Shown here piece after piece: positions 58,274 to 63,968 of a DNA stretch of 64,000 bases; position 1 is the stretch's first letter; each line of letters opens with the position of its first letter. Under the pieces are notes generated by a model. It made no database searches. It was not told the origin of the DNA and saw nothing but the letters and a program-made list of their open reading frames with translations. This DNA comes from Singulisphaera sp. (GTDB taxonomy: Bacteria; Planctomycetota; Planctomycetia; Isosphaerales; Isosphaeraceae), in NCBI GenBank assembly GCA_027451445.1, contig DAIDJG010000113.1:51186-115185 (forward strand), in the 5' to 3' direction. A program made the translations under genes and the position numbers.

Positions 58274-58398
58274 CCTCTCCCCTTGTGGGAGAGGTCGGAC
58301 GCGCAGCGGCCGGGTGAGGGGTGCCGGGGGACCGCGCCGCGTACTCCCTCCCCTCACCCCGCCGCTGTGCGGCGACCCGCTCCCACAAGGGGAGAGGG
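58274..58398. repeat. REP/BIME-like element, unit B (58274-58322) then inverted unit A (58350-58398)
   Basis: cctctccccttgtgggagaggtcgg...cgggtgaggggt ... cccctcaccccgccgctgtgcggcgacccgctcccacaaggggagaggg; same units as 28435-28570 in the opposite order. Confidence 0.88.
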
Positions 58399-58487: not shown

Positions 58488-61400
58488 TCAAACCGGCTCG
58501 ACGTCTTCCACCTGCGGAGCGACCGCTTCCGCCATGTCGGACTTCGTGTCGCCGTTCGATCCATTAGTGTCACTCGACTCGCCGTTCGCGTGGCCGTCCG
58601 AATCGCTCGCGGCCGCCACGGGCTCAGGCTGTGGCGGAGGAGGTGTGAACGTAACACCACGCCGGGCGAACCGTTCCTTGACGCCGGGGAGCCAGTCCTC
58701 GCCAGGAATCGCGTAGGGGCGGAACTTCTCAGCACGCCCTTCTTCCTCGCTGTGGTAGAGTCCACGCGAGCTGCCGAGCTTGCCCGCCGTCGGCGCGTCG
58801 ATGAGCGAGCTCGAATCGTTCTGGCTCATCTGGAACAAGACGCGCATCTCGAATTCCTTGAGCGACTGACGGTCGAACGAGCGGTTAAGGTTATTGAGGC
58901 TGTCGCACCACACGATCGTGTGCACGTTGACCGGCGGGCCATCGCGCAGGATGTTCGCGAAGTTCTTGGACGCGGGGACCTCCTTCTCCTCGCCGTAGCG
59001 CGAGAAGCTCCCGTAATCATCGTCGCTCTTCCGCAAGTCGCGGAGACGCGGGAGGTCGAAGATGATGATGAAGATGAGCGCCTGGTCGCCCGTCGTATCG
59101 GTCTGCCGGCGCTCGACTTCGGCTGCGATCTCCGACATGTTGGGAGCGAGCTCGCGCCAGCCAATGAGCTTGATCGAGTGCGGCAGGTACGTCGCGATCT
59201 CGGCGAGCTTCCCGTTGTTGACCGAGTCGGCTGGGCTGCCATCGATGAGGTAGAAGCGAACGTCCTTCGGGCTGCGCTGGGCGGCGAGACTGATCATCGA
59301 CATGCTCAAGATGCCCAGCGCCAGCACGTCGTTCTGGCCCACGACGAGCACGTTGCTGCCGCTTTGCGGCCGGAACGTCGCACAGGTCGGGTCCTTGATG
59401 GCGATCGCCTCGCCGAGCCACGCATAGTCGGCCTTCGGATCGACCGGCCAGTCAGGTGCGCTAATGAGCCGGTCGAGGATATGATTCATCGCCGGAATGG
59501 CCGGCAGGTTCCCTTCGAAGACGATCTGCTCGACCGGCGGCCGGTGCAAGTCGGCGTACATCTTCTGCAAGGTTTGCAGGTATTTCACCCGCTTGCCGTC
59601 CGGCAGCCAGACGACCTGGAAGACGTTATTCCCTTCGACCAACCCGTTCGCGTCGTTGTAAATCGCTTCACCGGGCCTGGTGAGCAACCGCGCGGCCGAG
59701 TTGTCGTCGCTCAAGATGAGGTGCGCATCGGCCTCGTTGCACTGGAGGGCGATGCGCACGGCCATCTGACCGAGCGTGGCTCGCGAGACCGAGAATGCAC
59801 CACCGAGCGTCTGCGAGCCCAGCATCACGTGGATGCCGAATGCACGGCCCTGCCGGACGAGGCGGTCGAGTAAAAGCGCAACGTCCTGGGCGACCTTGTC
59901 GTCCTCAGTGAAGAATTCCTGGAACTCGTCGACGACGAACAGAATACGCGGTAGCGCTTCCTTCCCATTCGTCACCTCTCGGAATCCGCGCAGATCCTGG
60001 ACACCGAGCTCGCGGAATCGCTCGCCGCGTTCCTTGAGCTCGAGGTCGAGCTTCTGCAGCACGCTCAACCCGAACTCGCGTTCGCTTTCCACTGCGATGA
60101 CGCGGGCGTGCGGCAACCCGTATTCGGCGTAGACCTTGAATTCGACACCTTTTTTGAAGTCGATCAGGTAAAGCTGCAACTGGTCGGGACTGTATCGGAG
60201 CACGCCGTTCATGATCAGCGCGTGCAAGAGCGTCGACTTACCGGAGCCCGTCTTGCCAGCGATCAGGCCGTGCTGCGAAGTGCCCTTGCCGAGGAGCAGG
60301 CTCTGGTGCTTGGTAGCACCAGCACGACCGAGCGGGATGTCGATGATCTTGGCCGTGTCGCCCGTCCAGAATTCTTCGGGCTTCGGCGCGATGAACTCGA
60401 ACGGCACCTCGACACGGTTGGCGTCGCGTGCCTTGGTCCCCACGACGTGCATGAGCTTGGAGACCGTCTCCTGGGGCGGCGGCGCGTCGAGTTGGAGCGG
60501 ATACTTGCCGAACTCCGGCTCACGCCAGGCGAGCTTCCCGTCGCGCCAGTTAAACTGGACGCAGGGAGCCTCGAGATCCTTGAGCTGAATGTTCGAAGGA
60601 AGCTGCTGCTTGATGTCCATCGACACCAGCGTGAACACGCCGCAGCGCGCTCCGCTATTGGCGATGCTCACCAGCCGTCTTGCCGCCGATTCACTAAAGC
60701 CGGCCGGGAAGTTCGCAACGACCAGGATGCGGTACGGCTCAGCGACTTCGCCGGCATGGATGTTGTACTGCTCGATCGTCTCGAACTCATTCCGCAGGTA
60801 CAACTGAATCACGTTCTCCATGTGGGCCGAGAGGTCCGCGAGCTTCTGCTCGATGTGAGGCGTCTCGGTCCAAATCCGGTCGGTCACGAGGAGGTCGTGA
60901 TAATCGCCGAGGTGCATGAACGCCGCGAAGTTCTCACCGAGCCCGACGGGGTCGATGATCGTGAAACGCACCTTGCCCGGCGGAATCGACGTCAGGTAGC
61001 GGAGCATTCCCGTGAGCAAGAACCGGTTCGCGTCATTCCGTCCCGCCTCTGCGGTCTTGATCAACACCGAAGACTGAATGGGGAACGGCAACAGCGCGGG
61101 CATCGTGAACGATGTCGGCCCCATCGCCTTGAGACGGGGATCGGTCGGGATCCCCTGGGGGATGTCGCTGAGGTCGACAGTGAACTCGCCAAAACGCATT
61201 CCTGGAGGAGCAACCTTGGGCATCTGCCACGCGTCGAGATCCTGGTGATCCCAATCGAGGAACGCGTTCGAGGCGACCTGATTCACCTCGTTGAGCACGG
61301 CGGCAACACCGTTGAGCCCGCCTTGCCAACGATTCGCCATCGTGTTCCACGCTTCTTCGTACATTTTCTGCGTGGTGGCTTTCTGCTGCTGGTATGCGTC

Positions 61401-62675
61401 CTGAAGCTGTTTGAGGTCGCGCTCGAATTTCTCCTTCATGTCGCTGAGGAGTTTCGGATATTTCTCGTCCGCTTCCTTCAGGGCTTGCGCTCGCCGCTCT
61501 TGAATCGCCGTCAGGAGCGCAGGGTACTTGGCGTCGGCCTCTTTCGACTCCTTGACGCGCCACTCTTCCAGGTCGGAGATGAGACGAGCGGCCTTTTTCT
61601 CCGATTCCTTGATGGTGTTTTCCCGTTTCTCGTCGATCTCAACCTTGCGCCGTTCGAAGTTTGCCTTGGCCCAGGCGCGAGTCTGTTCCATCAGCGCCTG
61701 GCACTCTTCCAGGGATTTCACAAGCGGCGGATAGTAGATGGCCACCTTTTGCCTGGCCACGCCTCCGAGCCAAATGCGGACCCCGACTGCTGCACCGATC
61801 GCGACGACCACACCCGCCCCGGCTCCAATCGGAATGCCCAGACCGAGGCCAGCGATCAGACCGCCCGCGACTGCGGCTCCCAGGAACAGGAAGGGCCAGA
61901 TGAAGGATTGAGGCCGGAGGAACTTCGGCAGCTTGAGCTTCGACAACGTGTCGATTTGCTCGTCCGCAACCTTGAGCTTCGCCTGCAACTGTTCGAGCGG
62001 TGACTGTGGGTCGGCAGGAACCTCCGAAGCATTTTCGGCGGACGCGGTCGCCTCGGGCTTGCTCGTGGCGGCGGGCGGGTTCTCCGCCGGCGTAGACGTT
62101 GAGCCGTCAGCGGGTGCAGGCGGTGTGTCCGACGTTGCAACCGGTGTTGAGCTCTCCGCCGGCACGGGGTTCTTGGGCGCGAACGGACGACACGCGGCGA
62201 GCGGCCCTTCGGCGTCGGCCTGAAGCGCCTGGAGTTGCTCGTCCGCGGCCTTGATTTCGTTCTGCGTCTCCTTGTTCTGCTTGAGCGATCCGTCCTTGGC
62301 GGCTTCGAAGACGGCAAGCGCCTGCCACTTCGTTTCTTCCTGTTCCTTCTTCGCGGATTTCCTACCGGACTTGACGCGGGCCTCGATCCTGGCGCGTGCG
62401 TCGGCGTACTCTTTTTCCGTCGACTGCTTTTCCGCTTCCGCCTTGCGCGCGATCTCAGCGCGCACTTGTTGGTAGCGCGTCTGGGTGGCGTCAGTCTCCG
62501 ACTTCGCCGCGGCCGTCAGCCGCACCTGAGCGTCGCGCGCTGCCTTCGCTTCCGCCTCTTTTCGTGCGTAAAAGACGGACTCGGTGTCGGTCTCCGCCGT
62601 GGCGCGCTCGGCGGACAGTTTTTCGAGGGTCCGAATCGCCTCGACTTCTTTTTGAATCAGTGGTGATTCCGGCAT
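58488..62675 (-). CDS. FtsK/SpoIIIE-family multi-ATPase membrane protein (EssC/EccC-like) with long N-terminal coiled coil
   Basis: Coiled coil (aa ~1-165), Pro/Thr/Ala linker, paired TM FIWPFLFLGAAVAGGLIAGLGLGIPIGAGAGVVVAIGAAVGV; canonical ATPase GLIAGKTGSGKSTLLHALI ... PRILFVVDEFQEFF; flanking degenerate P-loop modules (VLIKTAEAGRNDANR; VLVVGQNDVLALG). Start at MPESPLIQ (62675). Confidence 0.93.
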   Translation of the reverse strand: MPESPLIQKEVEAIRTLEKLSAERATAETDTESVFYARKEAEAKAARDAQVRLTAAAKSETDATQTRYQQVRAEIARKAEAEKQSTEKEYADARARIEARVKSGRKSAKKEQEETKWQALAVFEAAKDGSLKQNKETQNEIKAADEQLQALQADAEGPLAACRPFAPKNPVPAESSTPVATSDTPPAPADGSTSTPAENPPAATSKPEATASAENASEVPADPQSPLEQLQAKLKVADEQIDTLSKLKLPKFLRPQSFIWPFLFLGAAVAGGLIAGLGLGIPIGAGAGVVVAIGAAVGVRIWLGGVARQKVAIYYPPLVKSLEECQALMEQTRAWAKANFERRKVEIDEKRENTIKESEKKAARLISDLEEWRVKESKEADAKYPALLTAIQERRAQALKEADEKYPKLLSDMKEKFERDLKQLQDAYQQQKATTQKMYEEAWNTMANRWQGGLNGVAAVLNEVNQVASNAFLDWDHQDLDAWQMPKVAPPGMRFGEFTVDLSDIPQGIPTDPRLKAMGPTSFTMPALLPFPIQSSVLIKTAEAGRNDANRFLLTGMLRYLTSIPPGKVRFTIIDPVGLGENFAAFMHLGDYHDLLVTDRIWTETPHIEQKLADLSAHMENVIQLYLRNEFETIEQYNIHAGEVAEPYRILVVANFPAGFSESAARRLVSIANSGARCGVFTLVSMDIKQQLPSNIQLKDLEAPCVQFNWRDGKLAWREPEFGKYPLQLDAPPPQETVSKLMHVVGTKARDANRVEVPFEFIAPKPEEFWTGDTAKIIDIPLGRAGATKHQSLLLGKGTSQHGLIAGKTGSGKSTLLHALIMNGVLRYSPDQLQLYLIDFKKGVEFKVYAEYGLPHARVIAVESEREFGLSVLQKLDLELKERGERFRELGVQDLRGFREVTNGKEALPRILFVVDEFQEFFTEDDKVAQDVALLLDRLVRQGRAFGIHVMLGSQTLGGAFSVSRATLGQMAVRIALQCNEADAHLILSDDNSAARLLTRPGEAIYNDANGLVEGNNVFQVVWLPDGKRVKYLQTLQKMYADLHRPPVEQIVFEGNLPAIPAMNHILDRLISAPDWPVDPKADYAWLGEAIAIKDPTCATFRPQSGSNVLVVGQNDVLALGILSMSMISLAAQRSPKDVRFYLIDGSPADSVNNGKLAEIATYLPHSIKLIGWRELAPNMSEIAAEVERRQTDTTGDQALIFIIIFDLPRLRDLRKSDDDYGSFSRYGEEKEVPASKNFANILRDGPPVNVHTIVWCDSLNNLNRSFDRQSLKEFEMRVLFQMSQNDSSSLIDAPTAGKLGSSRGLYHSEEEGRAEKFRPYAIPGEDWLPGVKERFARRGVTFTPPPPQPEPVAAASDSDGHANGESSDTNGSNGDTKSDMAEAVAPQVEDVEPV

Positions 62676-62765
62676 ATGATCCAAACCCGTGGTTCGAGTG
62701 GCCCATCAACATGGTGCGGAAGGGTTGAGCGAGCCCTCGCGGGCTTCGACCGATAAGCGGGTGCG

Positions 62766-62972
62766 TCAGGAACACTCCTGACGCACCTTGGCCATGACCT
62801 CTGCGATCTTGTCCATGCCGCGCGCGGCCTGGACCGCCTGGCTCTCCATGGGGAAGATGTGGTTCTTCTCAAAGTCGAGCGCGACTTTGTCCGACCACTG
62901 CTCGCGGGCGATCTCCCAACGCTCGCGCAGGTTCTTGACGGCTCGTTCGAGGCGCGGTGCTCCCGAGGCCAT
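62766..62972 (-). CDS. 69-aa (incl. stop) helical protein with W-S-D-K motif; candidate WXG100-like partner
   Basis: MASGAPRLERAVKNLRERWEIAREQWSDKVALDFEKNHIFPMESQAVQAARGMDKIAEVMAKVRQECS. GAGGA RBS upstream of the ATG at 62972 (ORF opens at 62999). Confidence 0.78.
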   Translation of the reverse strand: MASGAPRLERAVKNLRERWEIAREQWSDKVALDFEKNHIFPMESQAVQAARGMDKIAEVMAKVRQECS

Positions 62973-63004
62973 GGACGTTTTCCTCGCTGTTCGGACCAAT
63001 CAAG

Positions 63005-63685
63005 TCAAGTCGTGGGTTGCGTTTGCTGTGAGTTGGCAGCCGTTTCCTCAGCCGCCACGGCGGGAGCGGCCTCTGTGGTTGCGGCCGTCTCGGTGGTGGC
63101 CGCCGTCGCGCTCGCCTGGCCGGTTGCTGCGCTGGCGCTGCTCGTGGCCGGTGCCGCCTGGTCGGCGCCGCCCTTGGCGGGCACGAAGCGCGGGGTGTCG
63201 GGGGCCTGGAGCGCCAGATAAGCGTCGAGTGAAGCGACCATCCGATCGAGTGCCGCCAGCGTGTTTTCGAAGTTGCCGGCCAGGTGGTCGCCCAGCGGCT
63301 GTGAGTGCGCGTGATATTCCGTGATCGCGTGCTCCAGCACGGGAATCCAGCGCCTCACTTTCTCGTACTTCTCCTCCGCTTCAGCCAGCCGTCGCTGCGC
63401 GAGGCGGAGATTCTCTTTCTGTTCGGTATCCGAGATCGCTTCGCTGCTCGAGGCCGCGAGCCGGCGGCGGTGCAACTCGCTCCGTGCGATGCCGACTTCT
63501 TCGTTCCGGCGCTTGATCTGGGCCTTCCAGTAGGTGAGCTGCTCGCGCTCAAGCCAGTCGCGAGTGCGGCGGACTTCCATCTCAACCGAGCTAAGAACAG
63601 CGCGAGCGTCCTCGGAAAACGTGATCAGCCCGACCTTGATGTCTGTGAGCGCGGCGACGGATCGGACATTCGCGGACTGGCTCAT
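63005..63685 (-). CDS. Helical/coiled-coil protein with Ala/Thr-rich C-terminal tail, unknown function
   Basis: Long heptad-like helices (NLRLAQRRLAEAEEKYEKVRRWIPVLEHAI), tail SSASAATGQASATAATTETAATTEAAPAVAAEETAAN; GAGGA RBS; 5-bp gap to the next ORF. Confidence 0.8.
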   Translation of the reverse strand: MSQSANVRSVAALTDIKVGLITFSEDARAVLSSVEMEVRRTRDWLEREQLTYWKAQIKRRNEEVGIARSELHRRRLAASSSEAISDTEQKENLRLAQRRLAEAEEKYEKVRRWIPVLEHAITEYHAHSQPLGDHLAGNFENTLAALDRMVASLDAYLALQAPDTPRFVPAKGGADQAAPATSSASAATGQASATAATTETAATTEAAPAVAAEETAANSQQTQPTT

Positions 63686-63695
63686 GGCAGGTTCC

Positions 63696-63968
63696 TCAAC
63701 GTTGCTGCAGGTATTCCTCGACGCGGTCGGCCTTCCTCATCAGGAAGGGCACGTGCTGGTTGGTCGCTTCGACGAAGTGAGCAACGACCTTCAAGGTGTT
63801 CTCGAACTCCTCGCAGAACTTCTCGTGCTCCTTGTCGCGCCAGGTTTGACCGAGGCCGACGAGCTGGCCGTGGAGGGCTGTCATCTGGTTCATCAGTTCG
63901 TCGTTGAAACGACGAAGCTGTCCCGCGAAACGCCGGAGTTCCGCTGGGTCAACAATTGCTTGTGCCAT
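63696..63968 (-). CDS. WXG100-superfamily-like 90-aa helical hairpin protein
   Basis: MAQAIVDPAELRRFAGQLRRFNDELMNQMTALHGQLVGLGQTWRDKEHEKFCEEFENTLKVVAHFVEATNQHVPFLMRKADRVEEYLQQR; W at the turn between two predicted helices, size and layout of WXG100. Confidence 0.85.
   Translation of the reverse strand: MAQAIVDPAELRRFAGQLRRFNDELMNQMTALHGQLVGLGQTWRDKEHEKFCEEFENTLKVVAHFVEATNQHVPFLMRKADRVEEYLQQR

What the first reader, a model, noticed from the sequence alone, without database searches (positions are those of the whole stretch)
58488..63968. Candidate minimal type VII (Esx/EssC)-like secretion operon in a planctomycete
Seen: four co-directional genes with 10, 5 and about 80-90 bp gaps encode a WXG100-sized helical hairpin (90 aa), a 226-aa helical protein, a 68-residue helical protein and a ~1396-aa membrane FtsK/SpoIIIE ATPase. 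Known: T7SS in Actinobacteria/Firmicutes pairs WXG100 substrates with a multi-ATPase EccC/EssC. Inference: this is a diderm T7SS-like exporter. Nothing resembling EccB/D/E, EsaA, EssA/EssB or MycP is visible in the window, although the operon may continue past the right edge.
Basis: partly seen in the sequence, partly recalled or inferred. Interest (0 to 1): 0.88.

Follow-up and report, generated by a model that had tools for sequence, protein, structure and literature searches.

The report
Minimal type VII-like export operon
A four-gene operon conserved across many planctomycetes encodes two tiny hairpin proteins, a long helical hairpin protein and a membrane-anchored motor related to the type VII secretion ATPase, so bacteria with two membranes probably carry a stripped-down relative of a secretion system known mainly from Gram-positive bacteria.

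Summary
In detail: four minus-strand genes lie where described. The small start-codon details differ slightly, and the contig ends at the window edge. The 90-aa protein is a true WXG100-fold hairpin: it passes the Pfam cut-off, and AlphaFold pLDDT is 93.5. Its bend motif is W-R-D in 46/46 relatives, not W-x-G. [quoted passage not shown]

The gene order is widely conserved in Planctomycetota. Genes 1, 2 and 4 also co-occur in the same ~40 of 294 sampled genomes, even where they lie far apart. EssB- and EccB-like parts are absent from this genome.

The kind has been noticed before: a 2012 table footnote covers planctomycetes, H. pylori HP0062/HP0066 is a pair of this kind, and a 2024 paper describes cassettes in defence islands. 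New here are the four-gene chromosomal, membrane-anchored form and an effector slot that holds a toxin-less long hairpin. Most likely it is a minimal type VII-like exporter. Export itself is inferred, not shown. Verdict: new variant of a known kind.

The parts
63696..63968 (-). WXG100-fold hairpin protein, 90 aa, with W-R-D at the bend (residues 43-45)
   Evidence: Pfam WXG100 32.4 bits over cut-off 27.3; 44/44 relatives match the model; AF2 two-helix hairpin 8-39/46-89, pLDDT 93.5; Foldseek top hits EsxB, HP0062, EsxA
63005..63685 (-). long helical hairpin protein, 226 aa: helices 8-80 and 87-158, then a disordered Pro/Ala/Ser/Thr/Glu-rich tail; candidate substrate or effector chassis
   Evidence: AF2; 54-row alignment; no Pfam family; tails of relatives variable and without a toxin domain; same slot holds nuclease-tipped proteins in relatives
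62766..62972 (-). 68-codon second WXG100-like small helical protein, W-x-D in 61/61 relatives (alternative TTG start at 62999)
   Evidence: ribosome-binding site and start; alignment; motif counts; profile cross-match with the first protein; 9/53 relatives weakly match WXG100
58488..62675 (-). EccC/EssC-related ATPase, 1395 aa from ATG (1398 from TTG at 62684): helical N-terminus, two membrane helices, helical region, three FtsK-type domains
   Evidence: FtsK_SpoIIIE 5e-32; EssC 1e-32, EccCa 2e-31, FtsK 6e-6; PDB profile search: EccC 1.6e-35, YukB 1.6e-25, FtsK 1e-8
61779..61892 (-). two adjacent predicted membrane helices of the ATPase (residues 265-302)
   Evidence: hydropathy; 63 of 76 long relatives have two, 11 have one, 2 none
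60615..61073 (-). first FtsK-type domain of the ATPase, Walker A site degenerate (approximate bounds)
   Evidence: 81-sequence alignment shows no GKS/T or DE motif
59610..60392 (-). second FtsK-type domain, active: Walker A GKTGSGKS at 60234-60257, Walker B VDEFQEFF near 59910-59936
   Evidence: both motifs conserved in 81/81 relatives
58695..59432 (-). third FtsK-type domain, Walker A site degenerate (VGQND) (approximate bounds)
   Evidence: no GKS/T in 81 relatives

Best explanation
The operon encodes a minimal, membrane-anchored type VII-like protein translocation machine of a branch marked by W-x-D hairpin proteins. Proposed working: the ATPase is held in the inner membrane by two helices and assembles into a ring like other FtsK-family motors; only its middle domain burns ATP, while the outer two act as docking and regulatory rings. 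[quoted passage not shown] The 226-aa protein is the most likely cargo. It sits in the gene slot that in a Helicobacter plasmid relative carries a nuclease tip. In planctomycetes the tip is gone and a disordered tail remains, so the exported product is probably a structural or adhesive helical protein rather than a toxin. Shown: folds, motifs, co-conservation, co-occurrence, membrane helices (predicted), kinship to EccC/EssC. Inferred: complex formation, export, cargo identity, crossing of the inner membrane only.
For: WXG100 fold and family. ATPase closest to EccC/EssC/YukB, far from FtsK; tree of active domains puts the planctomycete ATPases (SH-aLRT 97) with five plasmid relatives (96), apart from EssC/EccC and from FtsK. 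Same gene order in about 44 loci across Isosphaeraceae, Gemmataceae, Pirellulales and Phycisphaerales contigs. Co-occurrence in 294 Planctomycetota genomes: hairpin gene in 40, long-hairpin gene in 39, ATPase in 39; hairpin and ATPase together in 38 (Fisher p 3e-44), including 8 genomes where the genes are far apart (linkage counted by me from the listed coordinates; shared ancestry not corrected for). Predicted membrane helices. Relatives on plasmids keep the small hairpins next to the ATPase, with a long helical protein in the slot: Helicobacter has a WHH/colicin-DNase tip (Pfam 44.6 bits over 25.1) followed by a SMI1/KNR4 gene, the usual toxin-immunity layout.
Against: No secretion data. 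No accessory membrane parts found: EssB and EccB families absent from the genome, so how a two-helix ATPase would form a pore is open. The long-hairpin protein has no toxin domain and no second copy apart from the one beside the paralogous ATPase. A second cluster in the same genome lacks an adjacent WXG100 gene, and several relatives are lone ATPases, so the parts are separable. Authors who saw soluble relatives in defence islands doubted an EssC-like mechanism because those lack membrane helices. Kinship of the long hairpin to the nuclease-tipped proteins rests on gene position and weak profile scores (3e-6 to 4e-4 for three, none for Helicobacter).
Confidence: 0.6

Rival explanations
1. A cytoplasmic or membrane-tethered conflict (defence) module: the ATPase and hairpins assemble on the long helical protein as a sensor or abortive machine, with no export.
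For: Relatives sit in defence-like islands: Caballeronia plasmid cluster with vWA, Card1-like CARF nuclease, PP2C, kinase and AAA genes; CoCoNuT-linked cassettes; TerY-P-linked WxG/FtsK in H. pylori; Rhodococcus copy near TerD genes.
Against: In planctomycetes no defence gene is conserved beside it, no specific PADLOC system is recognised, the ATPase has membrane helices, and there is no nuclease tip.
Confidence: 0.2
2. A cell-envelope or membrane-organising scaffold: the hairpins and the long coiled protein form a structural assembly driven by the ATPase, related to the unusual planctomycete cell plan, without secreted cargo.
For: Toxin-free long hairpin with a disordered tail, chromosomal and broadly kept, single copy of the hairpin gene in all genomes that have it.
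Against: Present in only 40 of 294 genomes of the phylum, so not part of the basic cell plan; W-x-D relatives elsewhere pair with a nuclease-tipped protein.
Confidence: 0.13
3. A DNA translocase of the FtsK/HerA kind with helical adaptor proteins.
For: FtsK_SpoIIIE Pfam match.
Against: EccC/EssC models outscore FtsK by more than 20 orders of magnitude in E-value; WXG100 partner conserved; tree separates it from FtsK.
Confidence: 0.04

Closest known systems
[quoted passage not shown] 2012, PMC3482391, table footnote naming planctomycetes)
   Same: WXG100-fold protein with a three-domain ATPase of which only the middle is active
   Different: footnote gives no loci, no partner genes, no membrane anchor; here four chromosomal genes, two hairpin proteins, no sign of mobility in the window
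H. pylori HP0062 / HP0066 (PMC3397514, PMC4978471)
   Same: HP0062 is the best PDB sequence match (1.8e-11), has W-R-D in the bend and an FtsK-type gene nearby
   Different: Campylobacterota; published cluster mentions a nearby HNH/EndoVII-superfamily nuclease, absent here
EssC-like cassette of Type III-A CoCoNuT defence islands (PMC11090510)
   Same: three domains with only the central active, N-terminal helical/coiled-coil region, two WXG100 proteins, a coiled-coil protein
   Different: those lack membrane helices and carry a REase-like nuclease on the coiled coil; the planctomycete form has membrane helices and no nuclease
T7SSb (EssC/YukB, EsxA) and T7SSa (EccC)
   Same: WXG100-fold protein encoded beside a multi-domain membrane ATPase
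   Different: W-R-D motif, one active ATPase domain, no EssB or EccB in the genome; ATPase scores far below the EssC and EccC cut-offs (112.8 of 778.4, 109.3 of 509.15)

Membership tests
WXG100 superfamily | two-helix hairpin of about 100 residues | tested here: met
   AF2 pLDDT 93.5 and Foldseek to EsxB/HP0062/EsxA, TM 0.7-0.9
WXG100 superfamily | match to the curated family model | tested here: met
   32.4 bits over 27.3; 44/44 relatives match at E<=0.01
WXG100 superfamily | W-x-G at the bend | tested here: not met
   W-R-D in 46/46; HP0062, described as ESAT-6-like, also has WRD
WXG100 superfamily | dimer formation and secretion | not testable with these tools
   needs protein work
T7SSa / T7SSb | EccC or EssC ATPase (equivalog) | tested here: not met
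   best family by E-value but far under the curated cut-offs
T7SSa / T7SSb | more than one ATPase domain with intact Walker motifs | tested here: not met
   only the middle of three in 81/81
T7SSa / T7SSb | accessory membrane parts EccB (a) or EssB (b) | tested here: not met
   PF05108 and PF10140 absent from a 96% complete genome; PF10140 rang over cut-off in one control genome, PF05108 in none
T7SSa / T7SSb | EccD, EccE, MycP, EssA, EsaA | not tested
T7SSa / T7SSb | ATP-driven export of WXG100 proteins | not testable with these tools
   experiment needed
W-x-D / EssC-like mobile cassette (Zhang 2012; Bell 2024) | three FtsK-type domains, only the middle active | tested here: met
W-x-D / EssC-like mobile cassette (Zhang 2012; Bell 2024) | two WXG100-like proteins | tested here: met
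   P0004 and, less firmly, P0002
W-x-D / EssC-like mobile cassette (Zhang 2012; Bell 2024) | coiled-coil protein fused to a nuclease | tested here: not met
   long helical hairpin present, no toxin domain seen among 54 aligned sequences
W-x-D / EssC-like mobile cassette (Zhang 2012; Bell 2024) | ATPase without membrane helices (Bell 2024) | tested here: not met
   two predicted helices in 63 of 76
W-x-D / EssC-like mobile cassette (Zhang 2012; Bell 2024) | mobile location | tested here: inconclusive
   found on chromosomes, one phylum-wide clade, hairpin not found in viral contigs; far relatives are on plasmids

The most novel reading that the evidence does not exclude
Planctomycetota have domesticated a mobile toxin-export cassette into a chromosomal, membrane-anchored, toxin-free type VII-like exporter of a long helical surface protein: a working type VII-like secretion system in diderm bacteria made of only four proteins.
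Probability: 0.33. Interest if true: 0.78.

Novelty: new variant of a known kind. Interest (0 to 1): 0.62.

Why it matters
Recent reviews in the library place type VII secretion in Actinomycetota and Bacillota. A compact, widely conserved relative in cultivated diderm planctomycetes, with only one active ATPase domain and no EssB or EccB, would show what the minimal core of this export principle is. It would also give a tractable place to test whether the branch exports protein at all, a question open since HP0062 of H. pylori was solved and since the 2012 and 2024 reports of such cassettes.

Tried and rejected
Upstream extension: the contig ends at the window edge; relatives show no conserved upstream gene. 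Phylum-wide search with the full ATPase failed twice; repeated with a 581-aa core. YukD hit taken at first as a T7SS part: rejected, it heads an E2-E1-JAB ubiquitin-like operon. Separate toxin effectors built on the long hairpin: none in the genome. Known defence system: PADLOC gives only generic HerA/FtsK-type matches. Phage origin: no hairpin relatives in viral contigs, only distant ATPases. Foldseek on the long hairpin gave generic coiled coils only. Exog_C hit of the 68-residue protein: below the cut-off, dropped.

Full report
What is there. On the minus strand, 63968 to 58488, lie four genes: a 90-aa protein, a 226-aa protein, a 68-residue protein and a 1395/1398-aa ATPase. The first three have good ribosome-binding sites in the sequence. 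The 68-residue protein starts at ATG 62972, so the second gap is 32 bp. The contig ends at the window's right edge, so the sequence upstream of the first gene is not available in this assembly. The genes downstream are unrelated by eye (a tRNA-dihydrouridine synthase-like frame and a methyltransferase-like frame).

The small proteins. The 90-aa protein matches Pfam WXG100 over its cut-off (32.4 vs 27.3 bits) and all 44 family members scanned match too. AlphaFold gives a two-helix hairpin with pLDDT 93.5; Foldseek's best PDB hits are B. anthracis EsxB, H. pylori HP0062 and S. aureus EsxA. Its profile finds HP0062 first among PDB sequences (1.8e-11). The bend is W-R-D in all 46 sequences, as in HP0062. 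The 68-residue protein is invariant for W-x-D in 61 sequences. Its profile and that of the 90-aa protein hit each other's members weakly (hhalign E 4e-4 but probability only 34%), and 9 of 53 relatives weakly match WXG100. I read it as a second, short WXG100-like protein, with moderate confidence.

The 226-aa protein. It has no family. AlphaFold gives two helices of about 72 residues each packed as a long hairpin, then a disordered tail. Tails differ in length and content among relatives and show no domain. The genome has only two members of this family, each beside an ATPase of this type.

The ATPase. NCBIfam: EssC 1e-32, EccCa 2e-31, FtsK 6e-6, the same trend in 29 family members, always far under the EssC and EccC cut-offs for the window protein. 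A profile search of PDB finds EccC first (1.6e-35), then ESX-5 EccC and YukB, with FtsK at 1e-8. In 81 sequences the middle domain keeps G-x-TGSGK-S and VDEFQEFF without exception, while the first and third have lost them. Two adjacent membrane helices are predicted in 63 of 76 long relatives. In a tree of active domains the planctomycete ATPases group together (SH-aLRT 97) and with five plasmid ATPases (96), apart from EssC/EccC and from FtsK; several branches are long, so the deep order is uncertain.

Conservation. A genome scan found 253 relatives; nearly all of the best 80 are titled as planctomycetes, including isolates with complete genomes. The hairpin gene is recognised in 45 of these 80 loci, in 44 of them upstream of the long-hairpin, short-hairpin and ATPase genes on the same strand; many of the others are cut by contig ends. 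A second, WXG100-less cluster occurs in this genome (C562) and in other Isosphaeraceae. In 294 Planctomycetota genomes the hairpin gene is found in 40, the long-hairpin gene in 39 and the ATPase in 39; hairpin and ATPase co-occur in 38, with one ATPase-only genome (Fisher 3e-44, without correction for shared ancestry). By my count from the coordinates, 26 of the 38 have hairpin and ATPase within 6 kb, 8 have them far apart, and 4 cannot be judged because of short contigs. Keeping all parts after the operon has broken up argues that they work together.

Relatives elsewhere. Plasmid searches found the same core in other phyla. In a Helicobacter plasmid an 89-aa W-x-D protein (W-G-D) is followed by a 340-aa helical protein with a WHH/colicin-DNase tip, a SMI1/KNR4 gene, a 77-aa protein and the ATPase. 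In a Caballeronia plasmid a WXG100 protein 38.6% identical to ours precedes a 436-aa helical protein whose C-terminus I read as restriction-endonuclease-like, in an island with vWA, Card1-like nuclease, phosphatase and kinase genes. Pfam does not recognise that C-terminus, but the published cassette has exactly such a fusion. Rhodococcus and Deinococcus plasmids have comparable sets. The long-hairpin profile gives weak scores to the equivalents in three of these (3e-6 to 4e-4 in a very small set) and none to Helicobacter. So the slot argument is positional first, homology second.

What was known. Zhang et al. 2012 note, in a table footnote, solo WXG proteins with a three-domain ATPase active only in the middle, naming planctomycetes, and call them mobile versions of T7SS. 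HP0062 and HP0066 of H. pylori are described as paralogs of a WxG/FtsK pair that makes up a minimal type VII set. [quoted passage not shown] A 2024 study of T7SS variants treats Bacillota and Actinomycetota only. No paper in the open library pairs WXG100 with planctomycetes in a secretion context, apart from the 2012 footnote; subscription papers are not held.

Mechanism and limits. The best-supported reading is a membrane-anchored, minimal type VII-like exporter whose likely cargo is the long hairpin with or without the small hairpins. The fold, motifs, membrane helices and co-conservation are computed results; assembly, export and cargo are inference. Against it stand the lack of EssB and EccB, the absence of any secretion data, lone ATPases in some genomes, and the alternative seen in defence islands. 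The finding is a new variant of a known kind, not a new kind.

Noticed in passing
G000 C240, locus L139 3403-8675 (minus strand): Operon of a YukD-like ubiquitin-fold protein (106 aa), an E2-like (UQ_con), an E1-like (ThiF), a JAB protease and a membrane M48 peptidase: a bacterial ubiquitin-like conjugation system in the same genome.
   Followed up: partly
L005 7340-12281 (G000 C562): Second paralogous cluster (ATPase, 79 aa, 223 aa) without an adjacent WXG100 gene; the same short form occurs in other Isosphaeraceae.
   Followed up: partly
L153 584-7371 (unverified 'Bacteriophage sp.' clone MT836827.1, human faeces): Distant ATPase relative next to a ThiF-type E1 gene and a 349-aa protein with a W-N-D hairpin-like N-terminus and an HExxH motif (HELGH) in the C-terminal part; Pfam names no peptidase.
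   Followed up: no
L021, L052; L068, L070, L081: Relatives of the ATPase without recognisable hairpin genes: one group beside a GNAT-like acetyltransferase, another (Phycisphaerales; clear in L068 and L070) beside an oligopeptide-transporter-like gene (names by eye).
   Followed up: no
L141, L142, L143 (G024); L144 (G152): Genomes in which the hairpin, long-hairpin and ATPase genes lie far apart yet are all kept; the long and short hairpins stay paired in L143 and L131.
   Followed up: partly
window 58274-58397: Inverted repeat with 48-nt arms, 85% complementary, 28 nt apart, just downstream of the ATPase stop; looks like a dispersed palindromic element.
   Followed up: no
L126 8466-14454 (Rhodococcus pseudokoreensis plasmid): ATPase relative in a row with Hsp70, TPR/J-domain-like and GrpE genes, suggesting chaperone-coupled versions of the cassette.
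   Followed up: no
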